A stretch of DNA of 64,000 nucleotides, from NCBI GenBank assembly GCA_949825025.1, contig OX463781.1:25422192-25486191 (forward strand), given 5' to 3'. The translations under genes and the position numbers were made by a program. The DNA comes from Siphlonurus alternatus (Eukaryota; Arthropoda; Insecta; Ephemeroptera; Siphlonuridae). Below, in pieces: positions 10,183 through 57,035 of the stretch; position 1 is the stretch's first letter; each line of letters begins with the position of its first letter. A model generated the notes under the pieces. It was not told the DNA's origin. It searched no databases and was given only the letters and a program-made list of their open reading frames with translations.

Positions 10183-10533
10183 AATGGACAATTTACATGA
10201 TTTTTTCATGATTTTTTTTTTTTTTTTTTACTTCAGAAATGAATAGAGGGTACTAAATTATGCTACTCTGAATTGTTTTAGATTTTTTGAGACCCGGAAC
10301 TATTTTTAAATATTTATTGAAAGTCCTGTAATTTAAGTTGGCACTCCAGAATCCTTAATAAAAAGGATAAAACCGAGACGCCTATTGACACCTCCAGGGG
10401 GCGTGGCCGAAATTTCAATAATTTTTTAAAAATAGATACAGGACTCAAAAAAATCTAAAAAAAAATCAGAGTAGCATAATTTGGTTCCCTCTATTCATTT
10501 TAGCAGTAAAATATTTCATGTAAGTTGTCCATT
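10183..10533. mobile_element. Hairpin MITE, family B' (TTGTCCATT ends)
   Basis: The inverted ends are AATGGACAA and TTGTCCATT. Internal arms share the family hallmark: AGAAATGAATAGAGGGTAC, then TTATGCTACTCTGA, then TTTTTGAGACCCGGAACTA, repeated in reverse. It carries a GGGGGCGTGGCC block instead of the TGACGTCA of family B. Related copies: 42535-42859 and 56745-57035. Confidence 0.8.
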
Positions 10534-11084
10534 ATCCACCGTCAATCCTTGGTATGCTCACCGCTGATCAGTAAGGTAAAATTTTCAACCAGAACCAAAA
10601 ACCGTTAAAAATTGAAAATGGCTAACAGATTATAATGAAAATTGCATTGCAGGTTTGGTATCAGAAATGTAGGCCTTGCTTGAATTAATTTGGGCATTTT
10701 GATATTTCTGATTATGTAAAATATTTAACTAAAATTGCGAATATTTTATTAAAATTTTTTACATCCGAATTTTGAAAAAAGGTAATCAAATGTCTTGGAT
10801 TGATTCAATCAGATCGTGTGTTTTTGGGTAAAAAATATGATAGTATAACTTTTGATTAAATCACATTTTTTTCTATAGTGACTGTTTACGTTTTATCTTT
10901 ATATTATATTATTTTTTTTGAAGGATTTTAACTGAATCCCCCGACACTTTATGTTGCTCTGAGTCTAATAGGTTTAATTACATCATTTCACTAGTACATT
11001 ATTGAAGAAAATAAATTGCTGAAATCTTTTACTATTCTATGTCTCATTTTAATGTTGTAGCAAATGGTGCAAAATATATAGCTT

Positions 11085-30273: not shown

Positions 30274-30823
30274 CTGTAACACGAAACAAAATAGCTATAA
30301 ACATGCATAAATCGGTAATTACTATATTAATAGGTTACACAGAATAGCCACAAGAGAACGAAAAATTACATCCTGCAACAAAACTGATGAAAACGGGACA
30401 TAAACAACGCCTAATGTCCCGATCTTTTGGTCATGTACTAACCTTTACTTCGTTCGTTCATATCAGGATGAATCCATCTCTTGTCGCTTCATTATATAGT
30501 GGTGATACAGTTCTTGCAGTCACAATAAAGGCTTACAAAAGTTACACACACATTTATAACTCTTCAATAAATAAAATATAAGAAATAATAATCGAGACGA
30601 CGATAAGCGCCATTCCGCTGCCGTATTGAAGTCGCCATGTTTTTCCTAAGAAGCTGATATTATAAAAAAACTAAGAAAAAAATTGAAACTTCCTGAAACA
30701 ACCGCTTGAGGGCCAAGAAAATACAAATATTTGGGCCGCTCGGGAAGTCGCATCGCCATGAACATCATAAAATTTTACTAGATGTAGGTTTACGCTTTAA
30801 TATAGCTTTTTTTTTGTTTCTTG

Positions 30824-30829
30824 ATATTT
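30824..30829. repeat. Target duplication, left (atattt)
   Basis: Six bases immediately outside the left terminus of the giant element. The same six bases follow the right terminus at 48033-48038. Confidence 0.8.
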
Positions 30830-32019
30830 CGGTACGACAGGAGAATTCTTCGCTCTAACTTATACGAAAAGTAAGCACATGATAAAATTCTACGTATAAA
30901 TTGAAGGCCAATAAGAGTATTCATTAAGCGGCAAATTGCATAATTAGCGAGTAATTGAATTAATAAGATTACATGTTAATCATATGGAGGGATAAGAGGC
31001 CGCTAAATTTGGCAACGCAAGATGGATTCTCAACCACTTTGAACAGTCGTGAAGTTGGCATCGACACGAAAAAACCAATCCGACCAATCAGCGTTTAGAT
31101 AGTTAATAGTTAAACCTTGTGCCAACAGATGGCCATACTGTCCTCAAAAAGTGCGAAAGCGCACTAAAAATTTAAAGATCAAGGTTTTATCTACATTAAA
31201 CTGTATTTTTGTTATTGTACATAATTATAATATTATAGTTTCATGACCAAATCGAAGCATGTTGCAAGATTACACGGCATATTAAATACATAAAAACGGC
31301 ATTACTTAGAGAGAAACTCGCATAAAACGGAGATATAATAATTATAAGTTTCTCAATTAGTTCACATAAGTACTTTATATGCATGTTATATATGCAATTA
31401 ATTGCTGCATGGCATATAATTATGTGGCCGAGATTTATTTCTTCCGACGGTTTCATTATAAAGAACTACTGCGTTGCCGAAATGATAATTTGAAACTATT
31501 ATGTACCTAGCAAGCATGTTATATATAAATATCGATCTGTCCAAACATTTATTAAATATATATATATATATATATATTAATATATATAGTATGTAATTTT
31601 AAAATTAAATATTCACTTTATTTTAGATTAAATTGAAATGTACGTGGAATAAGATTTCTCCATGATGATTAAACATTGAATATAACTGTTGAGTTTTTAT
31701 TAATCTAGTTTTTATTAATTCGATAATCTAGCATCCTGCAATATTTTTCAACCATCTTTTTAACATTAATATGTTATATATTATATATATCACAAATATT
31801 ATATATTATAGCTCTCTGCATCTCATTATCTCAAAAAGTCATTTCAAATATGGAGAATCTTAACAAATGAATTTAGAATGAGAATATTAATTAATTACAT
31901 TAAAAAATTTTTGATTATATACTACACAGGAGACATGAAACTCTTTCGAAGTTATTTTTCTAAGTTTTGAGGTTATAACAATTTACTGAACAAATTTAGT
32001 ATGATATATATATACGAAT
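30830..32019 (+). repeat. Left outer arm of the giant element
   Basis: Near-identical inverted partner of 46816-48032. It includes a CCAATCCGACCAATCAG patch, a short (TA)n tract near 31557-31590 and a 71-residue open frame present in both arms with one difference. Its inner end already shows weak similarity to the satellite, as very old monomers. Confidence 0.85.
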
Positions 32020-35000
32020 TAAATTTAATGTCGTTGTAATTAACAGCAGAGGAATCTTTTAAAATGATTCTGAAATGACAATAAAGAATTTTCTGTTATA
32101 TATTACAGGGAACAACTTTTTGATTCACATTTTTCTGAGTTTTAATGTTAATATATTTGTTGAATTAGATTCCAATGTTTAAATTAATATATAATCAAAA
32201 TTTTCATGTCGCGTCGTTGAAACAGCGGGAAATTTGTCGATTGATTGTAAATTGGTTTTAAACAATTTTCTGAGGTGGTGATGATCAATTTTCTCCCTGA
32301 CAGTTTCCTCAATTTTGATGTAAATATTTAATGCATTAATTCACTTTGCTAAATACAATATTAAATATTCATGGGCGTTGTAACAGCAGGATATTTGACG
32401 AATGATTGCAAAATGATTTTAATCAATTTTCTGAGGTGCTGATTAACAACTTTCTCCCTCACATTTTCGTGAAATTTGATGTTAATATTTGATGGATTAT
32501 TTTACAATGTAAAATAAACTATTAAATATTCAAGACGTTGTAACAGCAGGAAACTTGACGAATGAATCTGAAATGAATATAAAGTAATTTCTGAGGCGGT
32601 AATGATCAACTTTCTCTCTGACATTTTCCTGAATTTTGATGTCACTAATTAATGCATTATTTTACTATGTTAAGTATCATACTATTAAATATTCAAGGAC
32701 GTTGTAACAGCAGGGAACTTGACGAATTGATCTAAAATGAATATAAAGTAATTTCTGAGGTTGTATTGATCAACTTTCTCCCTGACATTTTCCTGAATTT
32801 TGATGTTACTAATTAATGCATTATTTTACTTTGTTAAATACACTATTCAATATTCAAGACGTTGTAACAGCAGGAAACTTGACGAATGAATCTGAAATGA
32901 ATATAAAGTAATTTCTGAGGTGGTAATGATCAACTTTCTCCCTGACATTTTCCTGAATTTTGATGTTACTAATTAATGCATTATTTTACTTTGTTAAATG
33001 CACTATTCAATATTCAAGACGTTGTAACAGCAGGAAACTTGACGAATAAATCTGAAATGAATATAAAGTAATTTCTGAGGTGGTAATGATCAACTTTCTC
33101 CCTGACATTTTCCTGAATTTTGATGTTACTAATTAATGCATTATTTTACTTTGTTAAATACACTATTCAATATTCAAGACGTTGTAACAGCAAGAAACTT
33201 GACGAATGAATCTGAAATGAATATTAAGTAATTTCTGAGGTGGTAATGATCAACTTTCTCCCTGACATTTTCCTGAATTTTGATGTTACTAATTAATGCA
33301 TTATTTTAATATGTTAAGTATCATACTATTAAATATTCAAGGACGTTGTAACAGCAGGAAACTTGACGAATGAATCTGAAATGAATATAAAGTAATTTCT
33401 GAGGTGGTAATGATCAACTTTCTCCCTGACTTTTTCCTGAATTTTGATGTTACTAATTAATGCATTATTTTACTTTGTTAAATACACTATTCAATATTCA
33501 AGACGTTGTAACAGCAAGAAACTTGTCGAATGAATCTGAAATGAATATTAAGTAATTTCTGAGGTGGTAATGATCAACTTTCTCCCTGACATTTTCCTGA
33601 ATTTTGATGTTACTAATTAATGCATTATTTTACTTTGTTAAATACACTATTCAATATTCAAGACGTTGTAACAGCAGGAAACTTGACAAATGAATCTGAA
33701 ATGAATATAAAGTAATTTCTGAGGTGGTAATGATCAACTTTCTCCCTGACATTTTCCTGAATTTTGATGTTACTAATTAATGCATTATTTTACTTTGTTA
33801 AATACACTATTCAATATTCAAGACGTTGTAACAGCAGGAAACTTGACGAATGAATCTGAAATGAATATAAAGTAATTTCTGAGGTGGTAATGATCAACTT
33901 TCTCCCTGACATTTTCCTGATTTTTGATGTTACTAATTAATGCATTATTATACTTTGTTAAATACACTATTAAATATTCAAGACGTTGTAACAGCAGGAA
34001 ACTTGACGAATGAATCTGAAATGAATATAAAGTAATTTCTGAGGTGGTAATGATCAACTTTCTCCCTGACATTTTCCTGAATTTTGATGTTACTAATTAA
34101 TGCATTATTTTACTTTGTTAAATACACTATTCAATATTCAAGACGTTGTAACAGCAGGAAACTTGACGAATGAATCTGAAATGAATATAAAGTAATTTCT
34201 GAGGTGGTAATGATCAACTTTCTCCCTGACATTTTCCTGATTTTTGATGTTACTAATTAATGCATTATTATACTTTGTTAAATACACTATTCAATATTCA
34301 AGACGTTGTAACAGCAGGAAACTTGACGAATGAATCTGAAATGAATATAAAGTAATTTCTGAGGTGGTAATGATCAACTTTCTCCCTGACATTTTCCTGA
34401 ATTTTGATGTTACTAATTAATGCATTATTTTACTTTGTTAAATACACTATTCAATATTCAAGACGTTGTAACAGCAGGAAACTTGACAAATGAATCTGAA
34501 ATGAATATAAAGTAATTTCTGAGGTGGTAATGATCAACTTTCTCCCTGACATTTTCCTGAATTTTGATGTTACTAATTAATGCATTATTTTACTTTGTTA
34601 AATACACTATTCAATATTCAAGACGTTGTAACAGCAGGAAACTTGACGAATGATTCTGAAATGAATATAAAGTAATTTCTGAGGTGGTAATGATCAACTT
34701 TCTCCCTGACATTTTCCTGATTTTTGATGTTACTAATTAATGCATTATTATACTTTGTTAAATACACTATTAAATATTCAAGACGTTGTAACAGCAGGAA
34801 ACTTGACGAATGAATCTGAAATGAATATAAAGTAATTTCTGAGGTGGTAATGATCAACTTTCTCCCTGACATTTTCCTGAATTTTGATGTTACTAATTAA
34901 TGCATTATTTTACTTTGTTAAATACACTATTCAATATTCAAGACGTTGTAACAGCAGGAAACTTGACGAATGAATCTGAAATGAATATAAAGTAATTTCT

Positions 35001-37784
35001 GAGGTGGTAATGATCAACTTTCTCCCTGACATTTTCCTGATTTTTGATGTTACTAATTAATGCATTATTATACTTTGTTAAATACACTATTCAATATTCA
35101 AGACGTTGTAACAGCAGGAAACTTGACGAATGAATCTGAAATGAATATAAAGTAATTTCTGAGGTGGTAATGATCAACTTTCTCCCTGACATTTTCCTGA
35201 ATTTTGATGTTACTAATTAATGCATTATTTTACTTTGTTAAATACACTATTCAATATTCAAGACGTTGTAACAGCAGGAAACTTGACGAATGAATCTGAA
35301 ATGAATATAAAGTAATTTCTGAGGTGGTAATGATCAACTTTCTCCCTGACATTTTCCTGATTTTTGATGTCACTAATTAATGCATTATTATACTTTGTTA
35401 AATACACTATTAAATATTCAAGACGTTGTAACAGCAGGAAACTTGACGAATGAATCTGAAATGAATATAAAGTAATTTCTGAGGTGGTAATGATCAACTT
35501 TCTCCCTGACATTTTCCTGAATTTTGATGTTACTAATTAATGCATTATTTTACTTTGTTAAATACACTATTCAATATTCAAGACGTTGTAACAGCAGGAA
35601 ACTTGACGAATGAATCTGAAATGAATATAAAGTAATTTCTGAGGTGGTAATGATCAACTTTCTCCCTGACATTTTCCTGATTTTTGATGTTACTAATTAA
35701 TGCATTATTATACTTTGTTAAATACACTATTCAATATTCAAGACGTTGTAACAGCAGGAAACTTGACGAATGAATCTGAAATGAATATAAAGTAATTTCT
35801 GAGGTGGTAATGATCAACTTTCTCCCTGACATTTTCCTGAATTTTGATGTTACTAATTAATGCATTATTTTACTTTGTTAAATACACTATTCAATATTCA
35901 AGACGTTGTAACAGCAGGAAACTTGACGAATGAATCTGAAATGAATATAAAGTAATTTTTTGAGGTGGTAATGATCAACTTTCTCCCTGACATTTTCCTG
36001 AATTTTGATGTTACTAATTAATGCATTATTTTACTTTCTTAAATACACTATTCAATATTCAAGACGTTGTAACAGCAGGAAACTTGACGAATGAATCTGA
36101 AATGAATATAAAGTAATTTCTGAGGTGGTAATGATCAACTTTCTCCCTGACATTTTCCTGATTTTTGATGTTACTAATTAATGCATTATTATACTTTGTT
36201 AAATACACTATTAAATATTCAAGACGTTGTAACAGCAGGAAACTTGACGAATGAATCTGAAATGAATATAAAGTAATTTCTGAGGTGGTAATGATCAACT
36301 TTCTCCCTGACATTTTCCTGAATTTTGATGTTACTAATTAATGCATTATTTTACTTTGTTAAATACACTATTCAATATTCAAGACGTTGTAACAGCAGGA
36401 AACTTGACGAATGAATCTGAAATGAATATAAAGTAATTTCTGAGGTGGTAATGATCAACTTTCTCCCTGACATTTTCCTGATTTTTGATGTTACTAATTA
36501 ATGCATTATTATACTTTGTTAAATACACTATTAAATATTCAAGACGTTGTAACAGCAGGAAACTTGACGAATGAATCTGAAATGAATATAAAGTAATTTC
36601 TGAGGTGGTAATGATCAACTTTCTCCCTGACATTTTCCTGAATTTTGATGTTACTAATTAATGCATTATTTTACTATGTTAAGTATCATACTATTAAATA
36701 TTCAAGGACGTTGTAACAGCAGGGAACTTGACGAATTGATCTAAAATGAATATAAAGTAATTTCTGAGGTGGTAATGATCAACTTTCTCCCTGACATTTT
36801 CCTGAATTTTGATGTTACTAATTAATGCATTATTTTACTTTGTTAAATGCACTATTCAATATTCAAGACGTTGTAACAGCAGAAAACTTGACGAATAAAT
36901 CTGAAATGAATATAAAGTAATTTCTGAGGTGGTAATGATCAACTTTCTCCCTGACATTTTCCTGATTTTTGATGTTACTAATTAAAGCATTATTATACTT
37001 TGTTAAATACACTATTAAATATTCAAGACGTTGTAACAGCAGGAAACTTGACGAATGAATCTGAAATGAATATAAAGTAATTTCTGAGGTGGTAATGATC
37101 AACTTTCTCCCTGACATTTTCCTGATTTTTGATGTTACTAATTAATGCATTATTAAACTTTGTTAAATACACTATTAAATATTCAAGACGTTGTAACAGC
37201 AGGAAACTTGACGAATGAATCTGAAATGAATATTAAGTAATTTCTGAGGTGGTAATGATCAACTTTCTCCCTGACATTTTCCTGAATTTTGATGTTACTA
37301 ATTAATGCATTATTTTACTATGTTAAGTATACTATTAAATATTCAAGGACGTTGTAACAGCAGGGAACTTGACGAATTGATCTAAAATGAATATAAAGTA
37401 ATATCTGAGGTGGTATTGATCAACTTTCTCCCTGACATTTTCCTGAATTTTGATGTACTAATTTATGCATTATTTTACAATGTTTAATTATACACTATTA
37501 AATATTCAAGGACGTTGTAACAGCAGGAAACTTGACGAATGAATCTAAATTGAACTTAAAGTAATTTCTGAGGTGGTAATGATCAACTTTCTCCCTGACA
37601 TTTTCCTGAATTTTGATGTTACTAATTAATGCATTATTTTACTTTGTTAAATACACTATATTCAATATTCAAGACGTTGTAACAGCAGGAAACTTGACGA
37701 ATGAATCTGAAATGAATATAAAGTAATTTCTTAGGTGGTAATGATCAACTTTCTCCGTGACAATTTCCGGACATTTGATGTTAC
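32020..37784 (+). repeat. 160-bp satellite array, left (about 36 copies)
   Basis: Tandem units are marked by ACGTTGTAACAGCAGGAAAC, TTTCTGAGGTGGTAATGATC, CAACTTTCTCCCTGACATTT and TTGATGTTACTAATTAATGC. The outermost units (32020-32500) are strongly diverged and those from about 32840 inward are nearly identical. Between about 33800 and 36650 two monomer types alternate (TTATTTTACTTTG with CTATTCAAT, then TTATTATACTTTG with CTATTAAAT), giving a 320-bp higher-order unit. Repeated 84-residue open frames here are translation artefacts of the satellite. Confidence 0.97.
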
Positions 37785-38721
37785 TTATTTCCAGACACAT
37801 TTATGTGATCATTTCATGACTTGGATTTTCAATTAAATAAAAAATTGAAATTAAAAATTTATGTGCAAATATTTTAAAAATAATTAAAGTTGTAAGGAAT
37901 ACTTAGTTATATTTCGAGATATTGAATAACAAAGGTGATCAGATATCCCTCAATGTGGTAACCCAAATTTTAAAATAGCCCATGCAGGAAATTCATTAAA
38001 TTTGAAAAAGAAACTTAATAATTACAATTCAATTTGATTTAATTATTGGTTAATAATAATTCTAATAATACTAAAATTGTAAGACTCTTTTCTTACGTAC
38101 TTAATTAATTTATCTGTTCCTAAAGGTGGAGGAAAATTCTTAACTGAGACTCGTAAATACTGCCAATACTTAGAGTTTATTGTCTATTTACTACAGGTGT
38201 ATGCGGCGGCCTGCGTGGCCACCGCGCAAGACGCTCACGCGCCCGCGACTAGCACCCGAGTGATCAAGTAACGTCATCCGGTTCTCTCGCCTTATGCACA
38301 AAGTGCTGACATGTGGTTCTCATGCCGTGTACAATACGGATCATGGAAATTATCAACCTGCACGTACTATCTGCTGGGAAGGGAACCTTACAAAATTAAT
38401 AGCTCGATCTCAGTCTTGCGCGACCAATCTAGTTCTGTCGTAAAACTAAACTAGCGCACCGTGTCCAACGAGAACCACGGGGAGGTGCCGAGCTTTTCTC
38501 GTCAGGGTTAGGATTTTGAGGGTAAAGGATAATAAGGAGGAGGAAATAGGTTGTTTAGGAAAGTGGGTTTAACAATGTACATATATTTAAAACAATTAAA
38601 TTATCAATAAGTAATAAATTTATATATTTACAAGCATACATAGCTACAAATCAACAAATTATGTAACCATTTTATCATTTTATACAAGTAGAACATTAAT
38701 ATACAGATATATATATATATG

Positions 38722-38802
<81 letters not shown>

Positions 38803-40107
38803 TGCGTTCAAGATTTTTAGGCGAAGTTAAATTTAAGACATAAATACCCACCACCACAAAAAGCTTGCAAATACAATTACATTCTTATAATTACAATGGT
38901 TACTACAACCGTTTCAAACAAAGAACAGAATAGACTTGCAGCAAACTTAAACTTATTTTTTTTAAATTACTTTACAAAAATTTAAACTGATGCAATCGGA
39001 AACCTCTGTATGAAATGCTTTTGTGATATGTACAATTTTTTTAGCAAAATGTTACTGATGAAATTTTTAAATGACAAGATGGTTTTTAGATTGACTTTTC
39101 TGACAAAATATCATGCAAAGAAGTATCCTTTCTACCAAATCTTCTACTCGCCATGGTTGAAACAAACCATTGTTTATAATGTCTGTCGCATTTAGTCTTT
39201 TTCATTGTTAAACATGGGATGACGTATATTGCCTAATTTTGCCACTACAGCAAAGAACGTAATGGCATTGTTGGCGCTAGGTAACTGTTTTAACTTCATA
39301 ATTAACGGACATTTTCCTTAAGTTAACATGTAAATCAACAAGTGACCCATGTTTTTTCTTACACGCAACAGACATTACACAACAATACTTTGTTTACTAA
39401 CAACGAGCAGAAGACTATGCTTTCTACTATTTTAACACATCAATAAATCATATATATTGTATTTCTTTTTTTAATATTTAATTAATTTTCATGTAACAGG
39501 CCAAAAATTGGTTCAAGAAAGTGACATAAAATTATTTAGCACACCTTACAAATAACACGCCACATTTGTACCTTAATTAACTCCCTTGCAACACCAATCC
39601 GGGGCACATCTAACACCGATTCAATTATCGTAAAGCTCAGGAGAAAAGATACTTGTGACTTTTAATGTAGTTTCAGTATTATATTAAAATATTGAATTGA
39701 TCAAGGTCAACGGTTTTGCTTAAAGTAATAAATATTTGGTGAAGTTTAACTATTTTTTATCAGTATTCAGGAAATTTTGTATATGCGGTTTGCTTAAGTT
39801 GCAGTTTTTCATATGTAATAAAATGTACCAACGTTAATTTTTAACCTAACAGACTATAATAGTTGCATATTTCAACTACATAATTAAATGTATACAATCA
39901 TAAAATTATGCTTTTCAGCTTCCTTTTCAAATTTTTCTTGATTTGCTTGGTTTTTTGAGTTATGGTGTGGTACTAACTGATGGGACACCCATGATGTCAA
40001 TTTCTCGTGATGTGATGTGTCTGTTGATGATGTCAGGATTATCCGATCAATTTAGAAAACGCAATGCGCTAGTTGTAATTTGCAAACCCTTGCTTCTAAT
40101 ACATTCT
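37785..40107. other. Left part of the core of the giant element; no gene recognised
   Basis: It starts right after the last satellite base. A GC-richer block (38190-38540) carries no recognisable frame. A (TA)n tract of about 90 bp lies at 38708-38798. Between 39900 and 40107, past the OTU stop codon on the minus strand, short open pieces remain that may be decayed coding sequence. Confidence 0.5.
38708..38798. repeat. (TA)n microsatellite
   Basis: TA run with a few interruptions at its left end. Confidence 0.9.
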
Positions 40108-40288
40108 CTACCAATGGTCAATTGCATCCACAGGAATTTCAGGAAGTCCAATGTCTCTATCTGGCCTAAATTCATGTTGTAAATTTGCAACTGGAAGAAA
40201 CGCTGAAAAATGTTCAGCGTGTTTGAAAATGCGAATTATATTTGTGTATGCTGAAGCCTCAACTCTCATATGATTTTGATGTTCTATG
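40108..40288 (-). CDS. OTU-like cysteine protease, C-terminal part (separated by hAT insertion)
   Basis: On the minus strand this piece continues the OTU frame of 43249-43699 once the hAT element and one copy of its 8-bp duplication are disregarded; the phase is kept. It holds EHFSAF, in the right place and form for the OTU catalytic histidine (H-F/Y-S). It ends with TAG at 40110-40108, about 60 residues after the junction. As it stands it cannot be read together with the N-terminal part, because the insert has stop codons. Confidence 0.75.
40281..40288. repeat. hAT target duplication, left (gttctatg)
   Basis: The same eight bases follow the right end of the element at 43249-43256. Confidence 0.95.
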
Positions 40289-41563
40289 CAGGCTCGGACT
40301 GGCCATAAGAGTTGGTGAGCGATTGCTCAGTAGGCCCCCCCGGTTGGAGGCCCCCAAAATGTTAAAAGTAGGCCCCCCTCAGGGTGAAATAGGCCCTCCC
40401 TACATCGCGAAGCGATGTAAGATTTAATGTAGACAGTGTTCTGAAGATGTAGAGTAAAACAAGAGGCTTAAATCACAGAACAAAGAACTGACTATATATA
40501 GCTATTATATTTAATAGGTATTACTTTTATATATTCATAATAATCAATTACTTCCTATACATTTCAATTTATTTACTATGAATTTTCAACTTTGAAGTGC
40601 CAGAAATTTTTAAAACAAAAAGACAACAATTACATAATAACTTTCATGAAAAAATATAAAGGTCCTTGGCACAGTTGGAGGCCCCCCAAAAATATAAAAG
40701 GTAGGCCCTCTAATGAGGACCTATAACCTTTATTATTTTTAGGGGGCCTCCAATCGTGCCGAGGGTCCTTAAATTTATTTAAAAAAATATTGTGTGATTC
40801 TCTCTCATATGACCAAGAAGGCCTTTTATACATCGCGATCGGAAAAGATGTGAGAAAAACGAAGGAAAATAATTTTTGAAAAATAATTTTTGAAAAATAA
40901 TTTTGGAAAAATAATGTACAGTAATTAAATCAAGATGTAAAGCCCTGAAGGCCCCTTGGTCCTGCACTAATATAAGTCAAATTTAATATTAACATATTCT
41001 GTTGCGGTATATATGTTTTATTAATTTTTTTTTTTTTTCGCGTACACATCATCTTGTTATAATTATAATTATGTCATATATTATAGTAATAAAAATAAGC
41101 CAAAACGGTCCGGAACGTCAATCCGGAAAAGTGCATGTATTATTGAATTAAAAAAACTCATAAATTTTATTTTTAAAAATATATCTAAATTATAGATTAA
41201 ATTTTGCAAGCTTTTTTTTTTTTCAAAATCTTCCGCTAGCTTCGCGTTCGTAATTCGTAGTCTTCTTCATATGATATAAGACGAAAAGATGTATAGCACG
41301 TACTTTTTTTTTTCTATACATTTTTTTTTTTATCTATTCATGCATGATTTAATGCTCAAATCACTTAAATGAGAAACTGCACATATCCGGCCCAGAATGC
41401 AGTACAAATACTTTTTTTAGGAAATGGGGGAAAAAAAAGAGAGTCTAATTTTGACCTGAAAATAAAAATTGGAGAGATTTTAACATACCGCAATATAATT
41501 TGTAATGAATTCGGTCATTTAATTTTCGTTAATTTTCGAGCACGAAGCAACTACACATAATAC

Positions 41564-42107
41564 ATGACACTGAAGTCACTGAAATATATAAAAAAAAATA
41601 ATAAACGGATGAACATAGTTACGTGCATTGCAATAAAAAGGTTTGATTTTCCCAATTTAATCAATTTTTAATTAAATAAGAAGTATGAAATGTATCTGCT
41701 CCCTGAAAAAACATTTTTCCGGAAAAACAAACATTCCATCCAAAGTAACAAAATATTCGTCAACTTTTGCTGGCAATATATTTTTTATTCAAAGCTTGAT
41801 TGATTTTTAGTTATTTTTTTTATCGTTTAACTGTTCAACGCTGGCTAGAACTATACAAAATTATTTTAAAATTGATAAAGCTTTGAATAAAAAATATATT
41901 CCCAACAAATATTTTTGTTGGCAAAAATTATTTTGCGTTGGATGCAATGATTGTTTTTCCAGAAAAAAGTTTCTCTATGGAAAAGATACACTTCTCACTT
42001 TTTATTTAATTCAAAATTAATTTTTCTAATTAGGACAATTTAACTATTTTTATCGCATTGTAAATATTTTCATTCGTTTATTTTAAGTATTTCAGTGTCA
42101 TAACATG
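41564..42107. mobile_element. Hairpin of about 540 bp inside the hAT element
   Basis: Arms include TTCAAAGCTT with ATATATTTTTTATTC, and CATGACACTGAAGT near the left edge, each with its complement on the right side. Confidence 0.7.
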
Positions 42108-42534
42108 TTTTGTTAATTTTATATGAATTTTTAAGTGCCATGCACGTACGCAAATCGGGAAAGTCATGAAAATCCATTGAAAGAATCCTAGGTTCTGTCA
42201 AAAAAATCACAGAAATTTAAATTTTTGTTTCAAAAACATGAAAATTTTACTACTAAAAATTAAGAAATAAATTTACTGTGTCTCAGTATGTTTTTTTACA
42301 ATATTCTGGGCTTATTGAAACCTGCAGAGCTACAATTTAACACTCCAAAGTTAGGTGACTCAATTAACTTAATTGTGAATCCGAGAGTAGTGATCCTTAT
42401 TGAAAATCAAATTTTTAAAGGTAAACCAAAATTAACACTTTTTTTTTTACATATTCGGGTACATTACTAGAATTATTTTGGTACAATTATATGTTCCACA
42501 ATAATTTGATAAGATTATTTTCCTAATGGACAAC

Positions 42535-42859
42535 GTACATGAAAATTTTTTATTGCAGAAATGAATAGAGGGTACCAAATTATGCTACTCTGAATTTTTT
42601 CAGATTTTTTTGAGACCCAGAACTATTTTTAAATAATTATTGAAAGTGCGGCCACGCCCCCTGGAGGCGTCAATAGGCGTCCAGTCTATATCCTTTTTAT
42701 TAAGGCTTCAGGGGTGCCAACTGAAATCACAGGACTTTCAATAATTATTTAAAAATAGTTCCGGGTCTCAAAAAATCTGAAAAAATTCAGAGTAGCATAA
42801 TTTAGTACCCTCTATTAATTTCTGCAATAAATTTTTTTCATACATGTATGTTGTCCATT
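42535..42859. mobile_element. Hairpin MITE, family B', copy 2
   Basis: The ends are AATGGACAACGTACATG and its near-complement. The arms hold AGAAATGAATAGAGGGTAC and GAGACCCAGAACTA. The centre has CCACGCCCCCTGGAGGCG instead of TGACGTCA. Confidence 0.85.
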
Positions 42860-43248
42860 GTGCATTTTTTTACCCAAAGTCACACAGAAAAATATTCCAA
42901 TAAGGTTACAATTGGGCCTTTATACTTGCAAAACTCCACGATTAAAAAAAAAATAGGTAAAAGAAAAAAATAATATATAGTAAATATGACTCGCGTTATC
43001 AGTGTTATCACCAAAAAGGGTTTCAATTAATTTTTCCTGAGACTCCAAAATTTCACAAAAAATAATATAAAATCTCGCGATGTTTAGACATTTTTGTAAT
43101 AAAAAAGATAAGCGAGCCACGCCCCTTTTCTGAAAAAAATCGCGCCTGCGGCGGGCTACTTGGGGGGCTCCACCCCCCAAACCCCCCGATGGGGTGAGGC
43201 CCCCGCCTTTCATTGCTCAGTAGGCCTTTTGACCCCAGTCCGACCCTG

Positions 43249-43256
43249 GTTCTATG
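43249..43256. repeat. hAT target duplication, right (gttctatg)
   Basis: Exact copy of 40281-40288. Confidence 0.95.
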
Positions 43257-43699
43257 GGTCTGTGTTCAACAGTGCGGCGGTAATTGTCATAACAGAAGTC
43301 ATCATGCAACATGTAGAATGTAAAGTTTTGGTTCTGCTGAAACCTTCTAGTGTTTGGATTTCTAAAATCATGGTAAATGTAAATTTTACACTTTATTGCT
43401 ACGGATGTTGCTATTTCACACAGTATATCAGCATAGTGAAATGTGCCAGGCATTTGGTAGTATAACCTGACTTGATCAGAAATATCTCCAAATGAGCCAA
43501 CACTTATCAAGAGATTCTCAATTCTGTTATCATAGTCAGTTTCCATTGCAGGTGTCAATGCTGGTTGTAGGTAGTATTGACTGTATTTTGTAATAATTAC
43601 CAAAGTTAATAATCTAATGATACAATAATATCTGTCAGTTCCGTACAGCGTCCAAGATACAGCTGCATAAAAGCAATCACCTCCACCAAGTGTTCTCAT
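43249..43699 (-). CDS. OTU-like cysteine protease, N-terminal part (split by hAT insertion)
   Basis: The minus-strand frame from ATG 43699 reads MRTLGGGDCFYAAVSWTLYG, the Cys box of an OTU (ovarian tumour) deubiquitinase fold with Cys9 as the expected nucleophile. The second conserved OTU block, PGTFHYADILCEIATSVAI, is followed by the IYIYHD strand. The His block lies across the hAT insertion at 40108-40288. Total length would be about 210 residues, normal for a bare OTU domain. Two oddities: only eight residues precede Cys9, and the usual Asp three residues before Cys is Gly. The frame opens directly at the edge of the satellite array, so its true N-terminus may be lost or lie in another exon. 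OTU domains occur in several mobile elements; the role here is unknown. Confidence 0.8.
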
Positions 43700-43705
43700 C
43701 AATTT

Positions 43706-46700
43706 GTAACATCAAAAAAAGAATAGTGTATTTAACAAAGTAAAATAATGCATTAATTAGTAACATCAAAATTCAGGAAAAAGTAAGGGAGAAAGTTGAT
43801 CATTACCACCTCAGAAATTACTTTAAATTCAATTTAGATCAATTCGTCAAGTTCCCTGCTGTTACAACGTCCTTGAATATTTAAAAGTATGATACTTAAC
43901 ATAGTAAAATAATGCATTAATTAGTAACATCAAAATTCAGGAAAATGTCAGGGAGAAAGTTGATCATTACCACCTCAGAAATTACTTAATATTCATTTCA
44001 GATTCATTCGTCAAGTTTCCTGCTGTTACAACGTCCTTGAATATTTAATAGTATGATACTTAACATAGTAAAATAATGCATTAATTAGTAACATCAAAAT
44101 TCAGGAAAATGTCAGGGAGAAAGTTGATCATTACCACCTCAGAAATTACTTTATATTCATTTCAGATTCATTCGTCAAGTTTCCTGCTGTTACAACGTCT
44201 TGAATATTGAATAGTGTATTTAACAAAGTAAAATAATGCATTAATTAGTAACATCAAAATTCAGGAAAATGTCAGGGAGAAAGTTGATCATTACCACCTC
44301 AGAAATTACTTTATATTCATTTCAGATTCATTCGTCAAGTTTCCTGCTGTTACAACGTCTTGAATATTGAATAGTGTATTTAACAAAGTAAAATAATGCA
44401 TTAATTAGTAACATCAAAATTCAGGAAAATGTCAGGGAGAAAGTTGATCATTACCACCTCAGAAATTACTTTATATTCATTTCAGATTCATTCGTCAAGT
44501 TTCCTGCTGTTACAACGTCTTGAATATTGAATAGTGTATTTAACAAAGTAAAATATTGCATTAATTAGTAACATCAAAATTCAGGAAAATGTCAGGGAGA
44601 AAGTTGATCATTACCACCTCAGAAATTACTTTAAATTCATTTTAGATCAATTCGTCAAGTTCCCTGCTGTTACAACGTCCTTGAATATTTAATAGTGTAT
44701 AATTTAACATAGTAAAATAATGCATTAATTAGTAACATCAAAATTCAGGAAAATGTCAGGGAGAAAGTTGATCATTACCACCTCAGAAATTACTTTATAT
44801 TCATTTCAGATTCATTCGTCAAGTTTCCTGCTGTTACAACGTCTTGAATATTGAATAGTGTATTTAACAAAGTAAAATATTGCATTAATTAGTAACATCA
44901 AAATTCAGGAAAATGTCAGGGAGAAAGTTGATCATTACCACCTCAGAAATTACTTTATATTCATTTTAGATCAATTCGTCAAGTTCCCTGCTGTTACAAC
45001 GTCCTTGAATATTTAATAGTATGATAATTAACATAGTAAAATAATGCATTAATTAGTAACATCAAAATTCAGGAAAATGTCAGGGAGAAAGTTGATCATT
45101 ACCACCTCAGAAATTACTTTATATTCATTTCAGATTCATTCGTCAAGTTTCCTGCTGTTACAACGTCTTGAATATTGAATAGTGTATTTAACAAAGTAAA
45201 ATATTGCATTAATTAGTAACATCAAAATTCAGGAAAATGTCAGGGAGAAAGTTGATCATTACCACCTCAGAAATTACTTTATATTCATTTTAGATCAATT
45301 CGTCAAGTTCCCTGCTGTTACAACGTCCTTGAATATTTAATAGTATGATAATTAACATAGTAAAATAACGCATTAATTAGTAACATCAAAATTCAGGAAA
45401 ATGTCAGGGAGAAAGTTGATCATTACCACCTCAGAAATTACTTTATATTCATTTTAGATCAATTCGTCAAGTTTCCTGCTGTTACAACGTCTTGAATATT
45501 TAATAGTGTATAATTTAACATAGTAAGATATTCCATTAAATTTTAACATCAAAGTTCAGGAAAATGTCAGGGAGAAAGTTGATCATTACCACCTCAGAAA
45601 TTACTTTATATTCATTTCAGATTCATTCGTCAAGTTTCCTGCTGTTACAACGTCTTGAATATTGAATAGTGTATTTAACAAAGTAAAATAATGCATTAAT
45701 TAGTAACTACAAAATTCAGGAAAATGTCAGGGAGAAAGTTGATCATTACCACCTCAGAAATTACTTTATATTCATTTTAGATCAATTCGTCAAGTTCCCT
45801 GCTGTTACAACGTCCTTGAATATTTAATAGTATGATACTTAACATAGTAAAATAATGCATTAATTAGTAACATCAAAATTCAGGAAAATGTCAGGGAGAA
45901 AGTTGATCATTACCACCTCAGAAATTACTTAATATTCATTTTAGATCAATTCGTCAAGTTTCCTGCTGTTACAACGTCTTGAATATTTAATAGTGTATTT
46001 AACAAAGTATAATAATGCATTAATTAGTAACATCAAAATTCAGGAAAATGTCAGGGAGAAAGTTGATCATTACCACCTCAGAAATTACTTTATATTCATT
46101 TCAGATTCATTCGTCAAGTTTCCTGCTGTTACAACGTCTTGAATATTGAATAGTGTATTTAACAAAGTAAAATAATGCATTAATTAGTAACATCAAAATT
46201 CAGGAAAATGTCAGGGAGAAAGTTGATCATTACCACCTCAGAAATTACTTTATATTCATTTTAGATTTATTCGTCAAGTTTCCTGCTGTTACAACGTCTT
46301 GAATATTTAATAGTTTATTTAACATTGTAAAATAATCCATCAAATATTAACATCAAATTTCACGAAAATGTGAGGGAGAAAGTTGTTGATCAGCACCTCA
46401 GAAAAGTGATTAAAATCATTTTGCAATCATTCGTCAAATATCCTGCTGTTACAACGCCCATGAATATTTAATATTGTATTTAGCAAAGTGAATTAATGCA
46501 TTAAATATTTACATCAAAATTGAGGAAACTGTCAGGGAGAAAATTGATCATCACCACCTCAGAAAATTGTTTAAAACCATTTTACAATCAATCGACAAAT
46601 TTCCCGCTGTTTCAACGACGCGACATGAAAATTTTGATTATATATTAATTTAAACATTGGAATCTAATTCAACAAATATATTAACATTAAAACTCAGAAA

Positions 46701-46815
46701 AATGTGAATCAAAAAGTTGTTCCCTGTAATATATAACAGAAAATTCTTTATTGTCATTTCAGAATCATTTTAAAAGATTCCTCTGCAGTTAATTACAACG
46801 ACATTAAATTTAATT
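43706..46815 (-). repeat. 160-bp satellite array, right (about 19 copies, inverted)
   Basis: Same monomer as the left array, on the opposite strand. Units nearest the outer arm (46300-46815) are diverged in the same way as the outer left units. At the inner edge a partial unit ends just after GATGTTAC, the same monomer position at which the left array ends at 37784. Confidence 0.97.
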
Positions 46816-47234
46816 CGTTTATATATATCATACTAAATTTGTTCAGTAAATTGTTATAACCTCAAAACTTAGAAAAATAACTTCGAAAGAGTTTCATGTC
46901 TCCTGTGTAGTATAATCAAAAATTTTTTAATGTAATTAATTATTATTCTCATTCTAAATTCATTTGTTAAGATTCTCCATATTTGCAATGACTTTTTGAG
47001 ATAATGAGATGCAGAGAGCTATAATATATAATATTTGTGATATATATAATATATAACATATTAATGTTAAAAAGATGGTTGAAAAATATTGCAGGATGCT
47101 AGATTATCGAATTAATAAAAACTAGATTAATAAAAACTCAACAGTTATATTCAATGTTTAATCATCATGGAGAAATCTTATTCCACATTTCAATTTAATC
47201 TAAAATAAAGTAAATATTTAATTTTAAAATTATA

Positions 47235-47311
<77 letters not shown>

Positions 47312-48032
47312 ATAAATGTTTGGACAGATCGATATTTATATATAACATGCTTGAGGTACATAATAGTTTCAAATTATCATTTCGGCAACGCAGTAGTTCT
47401 TTATAATGAAACCGTCGGAAGAAATAAATCTCGGCCACATAATTATATGCCATGCAGCAATTAATTGCATATATAACATGCATATAAAGTACTTATGTGA
47501 ACTAATTGAGAAACTTATAATTATTATATCTCCGTTTTATGCGAGTTTCTCTCTAAGTATTGCCGTTTTTATGTATTTAATATGCCGTGTAATCTTGCAA
47601 CATGCTTCGATTTGGTCATGAAACTATAATATTATAATTATGTAGAATAACAAAAATACAGTTTAATGTAGATAAAACCTTGATCTTTAAATTTTTAGTG
47701 CGCTTTCGCACTTTTTGAGGACAGTATGGCCATCTGTTGGCACAAGGTTTAACTATTAACTATCTAAACGCTGATTGGTCGGATTGGTTTTTTCGTGTCG
47801 ATGCCAACTTCACGACTGTTCAAAGTGGTTGAGAATCCATCTTGCGTTGCCAAATTTAGCGGCCTCTTATCCCTCCATATGATTAACATGTAATCTTATT
47901 AATTCAATTACTCGCTAATTATGCAATTTGCCGCTTAATGAATACTCTTATTGGCCTTCAATTTACACGTAGAATTTTATCATGTGCTTACTTTTCGTAT
48001 ACGTTAGAGCGAAGAATTCTCCTGTCGTACCG
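46816..48032 (-). repeat. Right outer arm of the giant element
   Basis: Inverted copy of the left outer arm. Its (TA)n tract (47237-47309) is about twice as long as the left one. It ends with CTGTCGTACCG at 48032. Confidence 0.88.
47237..47309. repeat. (TA)n microsatellite in the right arm
   Basis: Expanded counterpart of the shorter tract at 31557-31590 in the left arm. Confidence 0.95.
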
Positions 48033-48038
48033 ATATTT
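48033..48038. repeat. Target duplication, right (atattt)
   Basis: Matches 30824-30829. Confidence 0.8.
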
Positions 48039-48339
48039 CTTTCCATTGTTTAATAAATATCTTACTGCAATATTGTTTATAATTTGTCGAACTTTTCTGA
48101 AATATTATATTACAAATAATTAACTTATTCTTTATTTCAAAATCATTTAACACTATTTGGTTGGTGCTTACGCTTCCTCACGCCTTTCTGATGTAAACAA
48201 ACCGAAGGCTTTAGATTTTACATTTTGAGATTTAATTTTGAATGAAATTAATTAGGCTGTCAGACAGTTGTCGTCATTGGATATTAATGCTTAAGCTGGT
48301 GTTATCTGTTGACCTTGTCTAATGTATTTTTTTCTACAG
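48039..48339. other. No feature between the giant element and the first visible exon
   Basis: AT-rich DNA ending in the polypyrimidine tract of the 48340 acceptor. No upstream exon was found here, so exon 1 of the gene may lie left of the giant element, which would then sit in its first intron. Confidence 0.4.
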
Positions 48340-56745: not shown

Positions 56746-57035
56746 TCTACTCTGAATTACTCTGAATTTTTTTAGATTTCTATGAGTCCTGCAAATATTT
56801 CTAAATAATTATTGAACGTTCTGTAATTTAAGTTGGCACCCCTGAATCGTTAATAAAAAGGATAGGACAGAGACGCCTGTTGATGCCTCCAGAGGGCGTG
56901 GCAGCACATTTAATAATTATTTAAAAATAGTTCTGGGTTTCAAAAAAATCTGGAAAAAATCAGAGTAGCATAATTTGGTACCTTCAATTCATTTCTGTAA
57001 TAAACAATTTTCATGTAGGTTGTCCATTTTGCATT
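56745..57035. mobile_element. Family B' MITE, left end truncated
   Basis: It starts inside the left arm (TACTCTGAATT) next to the 5S-like sequence and ends with the normal TTGTCCATT terminus. The centre has CCAGAGGGCGTGGC. Confidence 0.75.

What the first reader, a model, noticed from the sequence alone, without database searches (positions are those of the whole stretch)
30830..48032. A 17.2-kb inverted-repeat element that carries its own satellite DNA in both arms and an OTU protease-like gene in the core
Seen: matching termini CGGTACGACAGG, near-identical outer arms, 6-bp duplication atattt, two inverted arrays of the same 160-bp satellite, and a core whose only recognisable gene is OTU-like. 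Known: satellite-bearing long arms occur in Foldback/Galileo elements, 6-bp duplications in Maverick/Polinton and Dada, and OTU proteases in several mobile elements. I know of no class that combines all three. Inference: a new non-autonomous family, or a degenerate member of a large DNA-transposon class, that could seed satellite arrays around the genome.
Basis: partly seen in the sequence, partly recalled or inferred. Interest (0 to 1): 0.88.

Follow-up and report, generated by a model that had tools for sequence, protein, structure and literature searches.

The report
Giant satellite-armed Merlin foldback transposon
This stretch is one of at least 24 giant DNA elements with near-identical ends in its genome; those read in full have mirror-image arms filled with the same 160-base repeat, and this one holds a gene piece that resembles the tail of a Merlin-type transposase but shows no transposase domain, so it is likely moved by an enzyme made elsewhere.

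Summary
The element is real: the arms match over 4.3 kb at 95%, and their outer ~1.4 kb differ at few sites. The assembly holds 54 exact copies of its terminal 18 bp, which form 24 face-to-face pairs 9.3-29.6 kb apart. The duplication is 8 bp, not 6: 17 of 24 pairs have an exact 8-bp duplication, against 0 of 552 mispaired flanks, so the ends are 5'-GG. Arms hold 9 to 54 full monomers in the ten copies read in full. Cores come in at least four types. The window's core ORF is split by a 2.96-kb hAT-like insert, is uninterrupted in three sister copies, and is 43-44% identical to the tail of an 804-aa ORF elsewhere whose front half is an IS1595/Merlin DDE transposase. I conclude that this is a non-autonomous, Merlin-derived foldback family. 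No DDE domain was found in ten full copies and 14 sampled middles, nor inside the 24 intervals by a genome search. The OTU-like reading of the tail rests on motifs and sub-threshold matches. Satellite seeding was not tested. Foldbacks with repeat-filled arms (Tetris, Galileo) are known; a Merlin one is new to me.

The parts
30823..30830 (.). left target-site duplication GATATTTC (8 bp)
48032..48039 (.). right target-site duplication GATATTTC (8 bp)
30831..32267 (+). left outer arm, terminus 5'-GGTACGACAGGAGAATTC; degenerate satellite monomers from about 31939 inward
46565..48031 (-). right outer arm; degenerate monomers from about 46893 inward
32268..37790 (+). left satellite array, 33 full 160/164-bp monomers
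43721..46564 (-). right satellite array, 16 full monomers
37791..43720 (.). core, type A (shared with C11_44.8, C9_1.08, C4_32.5; also C1_0.22 and C6_7.72 by partial evidence)
43249..43699 (-). front piece of the core ORF (resembles the tail of a Merlin-type transposase, OTU-like motif; starts MRTLGGGDCFY)
40108..40288 (-). rear piece of the same ORF (contains EHFS), cut off by the insert
40289..43248 (.). nested hAT-like insert, imperfect ends CAGGSTCGGACTGG, 8-bp duplication GTTCTATG; uninterrupted site in three sister copies

Best explanation
The stretch is one copy of a multi-copy foldback DNA transposon family with 8-bp target duplications, which likely descends from a Merlin-superfamily transposon and is likely moved in trans by a Merlin-type transposase. 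Shown: 24 paired ends, 8-bp duplications, 5'-GG ends, arms that share outer monomers in register but differ in inner copy number (window copy), different cores behind the same arms, and a core ORF related to the C-terminal tail of a Merlin-type transposase gene. Inferred: an ancestral Merlin element with an OTU-like tail on its transposase lost its DDE part; its terminal repeats grew by tandem amplification of a 160-bp subterminal unit and by copying of core sequence into the other arm; a transposase from elsewhere recognises, or recently recognised, the conserved termini. Array length would change by unequal exchange, with the outer arms alike through exchange or recent origin.
For: Multi-copy: 40 of 40 scored terminal matches (of 56 candidates) are 98-100% identical; 54 exact terminal 18-mers, none with one mismatch, forming 24 pairs and 6 lone ends. 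Duplication: 17 of 24 exact 8 bp, 0 of 552 mispaired. Gene link: the core ORF's only relative outside the family among 9 of 9 scored matches is C1:845603-846217, inside an 804-aa open frame, with PF12762 at 35-37 bits over a cut-off of 27 and NCBIfam IS1595 at E 1.1e-15, though its 58 bits lie below that model's cut-off of 75. BLASTP 43% over 210 residues, E 5e-50. Merlin features per PMC8101967 (passages read): terminal 5'-GG-3', 8- or 9-bp duplications. Array history: the outer four monomers of the window's two arms differ by 1-4 positions in register, inner ones keep no register. Core type B (C8, C7_18.3) is made of left parts of core A, at 79-92% identity, in mirrored arrangement; all of C8 has an inverted partner at 85% or more.
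Against: No DDE remnant in the window, nine other full copies and 14 sampled middles; the only further tblastn matches are weak (E 0.2-0.8) and outside the DDE part. None of 8 of 8 scored PF12762 matches in the genome (7 over the cut-off) lies in the 24 intervals. No family terminus at up to 3 mismatches lies near the 804-aa ORF: the nearest listed places on C1 are 0.34 and 2.33 Mb, and its 5-kb surroundings show no matching ends. The tails are only 43-44% identical, so that gene need not be the mover. Arms are far longer than the 24-462 bp cited for Merlin. 7 of 24 pairs lack an exact 8-bp duplication.
Confidence: 0.72

Rival explanations
1. A Mutator-like (MULE) foldback, as proposed for Tetris and shown for Tm1, which captured the tail of an unrelated Merlin gene as cargo. 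Movement would be by a MULE transposase.
For: Duplications of 8-10 bp are also MULE-like and most foldbacks are assigned to Mutator (PMC4079207 passages; PMC3169594 passages). G/C-rich first bases also fit arthropod MULEs (PMC13359780 passages). Different cores occur behind the same arms, so capture is possible.
Against: The 17 exact duplications are 8 bp; Tm1 and MULEs mostly give 9. The coding relic comes from a gene fused to a Merlin domain. The MULE search of the genome did not complete, so this rival is untested.
Confidence: 0.18
2. Polinton/Maverick or Dada relative with a 6-bp duplication.
For: The 6-bp reading fits the window copy alone.
Against: 8-bp duplications across the family; the core ORF is related to a Merlin-type protein.
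Confidence: 0.02
3. Assembly artefact: the second arm is a mis-joined copy of the first.
For: Outer arms nearly identical.
Against: 24 pairs at different places, 17 with their own exact duplication; the two arrays of the window differ in copy number and order. Reads were not available, so array lengths themselves may contain assembly error.
Confidence: 0.02
4. Merlin foldback in which the tail ORF is kept as a working small protein (for instance an OTU-like protease acting for the element).
For: ORF open in three sister copies, with Cys (GGGDCFY) and His (EHFS) conserved to the 804-aa relative.
Against: Changes among four copies are 0 synonymous to 4 non-synonymous bases (too few to test); the C1_0.22 copy has stops in it; no tail match lies in the fully read copies of the other core types, several of which have exact 8-bp duplications.
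Confidence: 0.06

Closest known systems
Merlin superfamily (IS1016/IS1595-like; PMC8101967, passages read)
   Same: 5'-GG termini, 8-bp duplications, coding relic related to the tail of a Merlin-type transposase gene of the same genome; internal tandem repeats are reported in some Merlin families
   Different: 9-30 kb instead of a few kb (usual size recalled), arms of kilobases with satellite arrays, no DDE domain found in the copies examined, tail with OTU-like motifs not mentioned in that paper (term 'otu' 0 times)
Tetris foldback of Drosophila virilis (PMC4079207, passages read)
   Same: non-autonomous foldback with ~220-bp tandem repeats inside the inverted repeats, 8-10 bp duplications, no transposase found
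   Different: suggested to be Mutator; its repeats are reported to form longer satellite arrays, which was not tested here
Galileo of Drosophila (P superfamily; PMC3573991, passages read)
   Same: long terminal repeats with internal tandem repeats that change in number independently in each arm, recruitment of internal sequence into the arms, chimeric copies without matching duplications
   Different: 7-bp duplications, P-type transposase, arms up to ~1.25 kb
Tm1 Mutator/Foldback of root-knot nematodes (PMC3169594, passages read)
   Same: composite inverted repeats of variable length, non-autonomous majority
   Different: mostly 9-bp duplications, MULE transposase
Ginger DNA transposons (PMC2836005, seen in search listings only)
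   Same: the listing shows the words 'OTU domain' in that paper, so OTU domains in DNA transposons are not new as such
   Different: Gypsy-integrase-like transposase by its abstract, not IS1595/Merlin

Membership tests
Merlin | 8- or 9-bp target-site duplication | tested here: met
   17 of 24 pairs exact 8 bp, 0 of 552 mispaired
Merlin | terminal 5'-GG-3' | tested here: met
   54 exact GGTACGACAGGAGAATTC ends
Merlin | IS1595-type DDE transposase encoded by the element | tested here: not met
   no DDE remnant in 10 full copies and 14 sampled middles; 0 of 8 scored genome hits within the 24 intervals. Filed as Merlin-derived and non-autonomous, not as an autonomous Merlin
Merlin | coding relic related to a Merlin transposase gene | tested here: met
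   43-44% to residues 599-803 of the 804-aa ORF; the shared part is the tail, not the DDE domain
Merlin | terminal inverted repeats of 24-462 bp (range cited in PMC8101967) | tested here: not met
   arms of kilobases; a range, not a rule
Foldback (structural class) | long inverted repeats with internal tandem repeats | tested here: met
   window and nine other full copies
Mutator (MULE) | MULE transposase linked to the family | not tested
   PF10551 search not answered
Galileo / P superfamily | 7-bp duplication | tested here: not met
Polinton/Maverick | 6-bp duplication | tested here: not met
OTU protease | profile match to PF02338 | tested here: not met
   none up to E 10 for the tail ORFs; the PF02338 search of the genome scored 9 of 9 candidates and gave four matches, none at an element
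OTU protease | catalytic Cys in a (G)D-x-C-F/Y motif and a downstream His (layout recalled) | tested here: inconclusive
   GGGDCFY and EHFS conserved in both proteins; solved-structure matches to OTUD5 at E 0.14 and viral OTU at E 0.8, but mt-SAF13 at E 0.11 in the third search

The most novel reading that the evidence does not exclude
A Merlin lineage whose transposase carries an OTU-like protease tail has produced giant foldback elements of up to ~30 kb, some almost wholly palindromic. Their terminal repeats act as nurseries for a 160-bp satellite, so Merlin transposition distributes ready-made satellite arrays through the genome.
Probability: 0.4. Interest if true: 0.7.

Novelty: new variant of a known kind. 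Interest (0 to 1): 0.55.

Why it matters
Foldback elements are usually traced to Mutator or P transposases. This family would tie the foldback form, at unusual size, to a third superfamily, Merlin, which is known for small elements (recalled). It gives 24 insertions, with 9 to 54 monomers per arm in the ten copies read in full, so growth and loss of satellite arrays inside a moving element can be followed copy by copy. The 804-aa gene offers a testable transposase with an OTU-like tail; the searches listed no paper that by its title or abstract start describes a Merlin-OTU fusion or a Merlin foldback.

Tried and rejected
6-bp duplication, Polinton and Dada: rejected. KDZ/Zisupton (8-bp duplications, passages of PMC12730594): considered, no coding link found, family not searched for. 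Terminal motif GGTACGACAGG repeated inside the arms as binding sites: not found at up to 2 mismatches apart from the ends. Terminal letters in print: 12 papers hold the 11-mer, none on transposons of this kind by title. Short ORFs of other cores: only sub-threshold matches. Structure model of the window piece: mean pLDDT 37.8, not used. Protein searches with the tail found nothing at E 1 or better; with the 804-aa protein five matches covering 12-14% of it, which I read as its proline-threonine repeat without checking residue by residue. Not answered and so untested: monomer DNA search for free satellite arrays, genome search with the 804-aa protein, MULE family.

Full report
Observation. The inverted arms, the two inverted arrays and the matching termini are in the sequence. 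The alignment of the arms runs over 4332 columns at 95.4%. The outer arms differ at few positions, apart from an AT-repeat length change. The duplication as read by the first stage is ambiguous in this copy: ATATTT (6 bp) with ends CGGTACGAC, or GATATTTC (8 bp) with ends GGTACGAC.

Family. A genome search with the first 161 bases scored 40 of 56 candidates, all 98-100% identical. The terminal 18-mer has 129 places at up to 3 mismatches: 54 exact, none with one mismatch, and 75 with 2-3, against 100 for the reversed-pattern control, so the 2-3 mismatch places are background; 100 of the 129 places were listed. The 54 ends form 24 face-to-face pairs, 9.3 to 29.6 kb apart, and 6 lone ends (counted by me). 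For all 24 pairs I read the flanks: 17 have an exact 8-bp duplication, one differs at 1 of 8 positions, two at 2 of 8, and four have none. Of these four, C2_51.4 has a 14-bp repeat of its flank and C1_11.4 a 5-bp one. Of 552 mispaired flank combinations none match exactly; flanks of the six lone ends match no other end even with one mismatch. This fixes the duplication at 8 bp and the first bases of the element as GG.

Age. For 30 ends compared over 690 bases, 9 of 11 within-copy pairs differ by 0.1-1.2%; the other two give 33% and 38%, from inserted or shifted sequence by my reading. With two right ends (L020 and L028) dropped, the median over 378 pairs of 28 ends is 0.9% (mean 3.7%, maximum 39%, because the disturbed end L029 stayed in). 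The termini are young.

Arms. In the window copy the satellite grades outward into degenerate monomers: bit scores fall from 131 to 106, 101, 87, 21 and 14 towards the end in the left arm, and from 137 to 98, 87, 23 and 12 in the right arm. The outermost four monomers match between the arms in register with 1-4 differences (any other pairing of these 16 or more), while inside there is no register and identical monomers are shared out of order. In ten fully read copies the arms hold 9 to 54 full monomers, and the inner border of the array is at the same monomer position, within one base, in copies of one core type. Mean monomer distance is 10.4 within an arm, 11.5 between arms of a copy and 12.1 between copies, so homogenisation within copies is slight. 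This is what array growth and loss by unequal exchange inside a duplicated terminal repeat would leave (inference).

Cores. Of 24 pairs, ten were read in full and fourteen sampled in the middle by 1 or 2.5 kb. By my count: type A (window, C11_44.8, C9_1.08, C4_32.5, C1_0.22, C6_7.72) 6; type B, left parts of A in mirrored arrangement (C8_5.03, C7_18.3, C1_10.35, C2_37.8, C2_51.4, C3_21.99 and, by a 71-base edge, C3_44.47) 7; type C, GC-rich mirrored repeats (C7_17.3, C2_43.6, C1_30.7, C2_22.1) 4; C2_17.96 alone 1; unresolved 6. In C8 all of the element has an inverted partner at 85% identity or more; in the other nine copies 66-82%. Type B suggests that core sequence was copied into the other arm, as described for extended Galileo arms (PMC3573991, passages read).

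Core gene. In the window a 2960-bp hAT-like insert with 8-bp duplication GTTCTATG lies inside the ORF; three sister copies have the uninterrupted site with one GTTCTATG and an open frame of 211-213 codons. A six-frame search of the genome with the ORF scored 9 of 9 candidates: eight belong to element copies (two of them the window's pieces, two in C1_0.22, which has stops), and one is C1:845603-846217, 44% identical within an 804-aa open frame. That frame has an ISXO2/IS1595 DDE domain over the Pfam cut-off and an NCBIfam IS1595 match at E 1.1e-15 but below that model's cut-off. Candidate catalytic residues ELDE, TDG and NTQE lie near 181, 245 and 283 (assignment by me). The shared tail starts at residue 599. 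GGGDCFY and EHFS are conserved between the two, which is the layout I would expect for an OTU-like Cys/His pair. Profile evidence is absent or below threshold: no OTU match in Pfam; one sub-threshold match to ADYC; in solved structures viral OTU at E 0.8 for the window piece, OTUD5 at E 0.14 for the alignment, but mt-SAF13 at E 0.11 for the whole sister ORF. Among four type-A copies the ORF differs by 4 non-synonymous and 0 synonymous bases, too few for a test.

What it is. 5'-GG ends and 8-bp duplications are among the Merlin features listed in PMC8101967 (passages read), and the only coding relic found points to a Merlin-type gene. Merlin DDE domains were found at eight places in the genome, seven over the cut-off, and none is inside the 24 intervals; no DDE remnant was found in the ten full copies and fourteen sampled middles. 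The unsampled parts of those fourteen copies were covered only by the genome search. The family is therefore best described as non-autonomous, Merlin-derived and foldback in form. That the mover is a Merlin transposase is inferred. The 804-aa gene is a candidate, but its tail is only 43-44% identical and its surroundings show no family termini.

Known relatives. Tetris (PMC4079207) is a non-autonomous foldback with ~220-bp repeats in its arms that provided building blocks for satellite arrays (passages read). Galileo and Tm1 show similar plasticity under P and Mutator transposases. OTU domains are mentioned for Ginger transposons (listing only). The combination with Merlin was not seen in the listings, which cover only the held library.

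Host. Window coding hints are weak (protein kinase and NDUFS5 matches below cut-off, a reverse transcriptase over it). With a 456-Mb assembly in 102 contigs they point to an animal, insect-like by my reading; the species is not known.

Noticed in passing
40289-43248: hAT-like insert of 2960 bp with imperfect ends and 8-bp duplication GTTCTATG, itself containing palindromic repeats of ~170-480 bp, one of which (42524-42831) also occurs at 10227-10534 and 56758-57028.
   Followed up: partly
L025 and L026 (C2:51.396-51.405 Mb): Element copy whose flanks repeat 14 bp (TAGTACCTTCTGTA) on both sides instead of 8 bp.
   Followed up: no
L038-L039 (C8) and L042-L044 (C7): Type B cores of about 2.6 kb align to their own reverse complement across the centre, so they are near-loopless palindromes inside elements of about 15 and 24 kb.
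   Followed up: partly
L045 and L074: Two copies (C2_43.6 and C2_36.98) share non-satellite sequence (1 kb compared, 98.9%) that lies inside the array of the first as a 2.2-kb stretch; a shared insert or a common origin.
   Followed up: no
L094:2198-4612: 804-aa open frame joining an IS1595/Merlin DDE domain, a proline-threonine repeat and the OTU-like tail; the only non-element relative found by the tail search.
   Followed up: partly
G000:C9:11345299-11351146: Three Merlin-type DDE open frames of 310-338 aa in a row within 6 kb.
   Followed up: no
L035:7222-8694 (C4_32.5, left array): A 1.5-kb insert with a 439-aa open frame that reads like a non-LTR reverse transcriptase (my reading) interrupts the array.
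   Followed up: no
window 10.2, 11.9, 17.2, 20.8, 23.3, 42.5, 63.7 kb: A ~300-bp repeat family that matches itself in both orientations, with several copies across the window, looks like a palindromic MITE.
   Followed up: no
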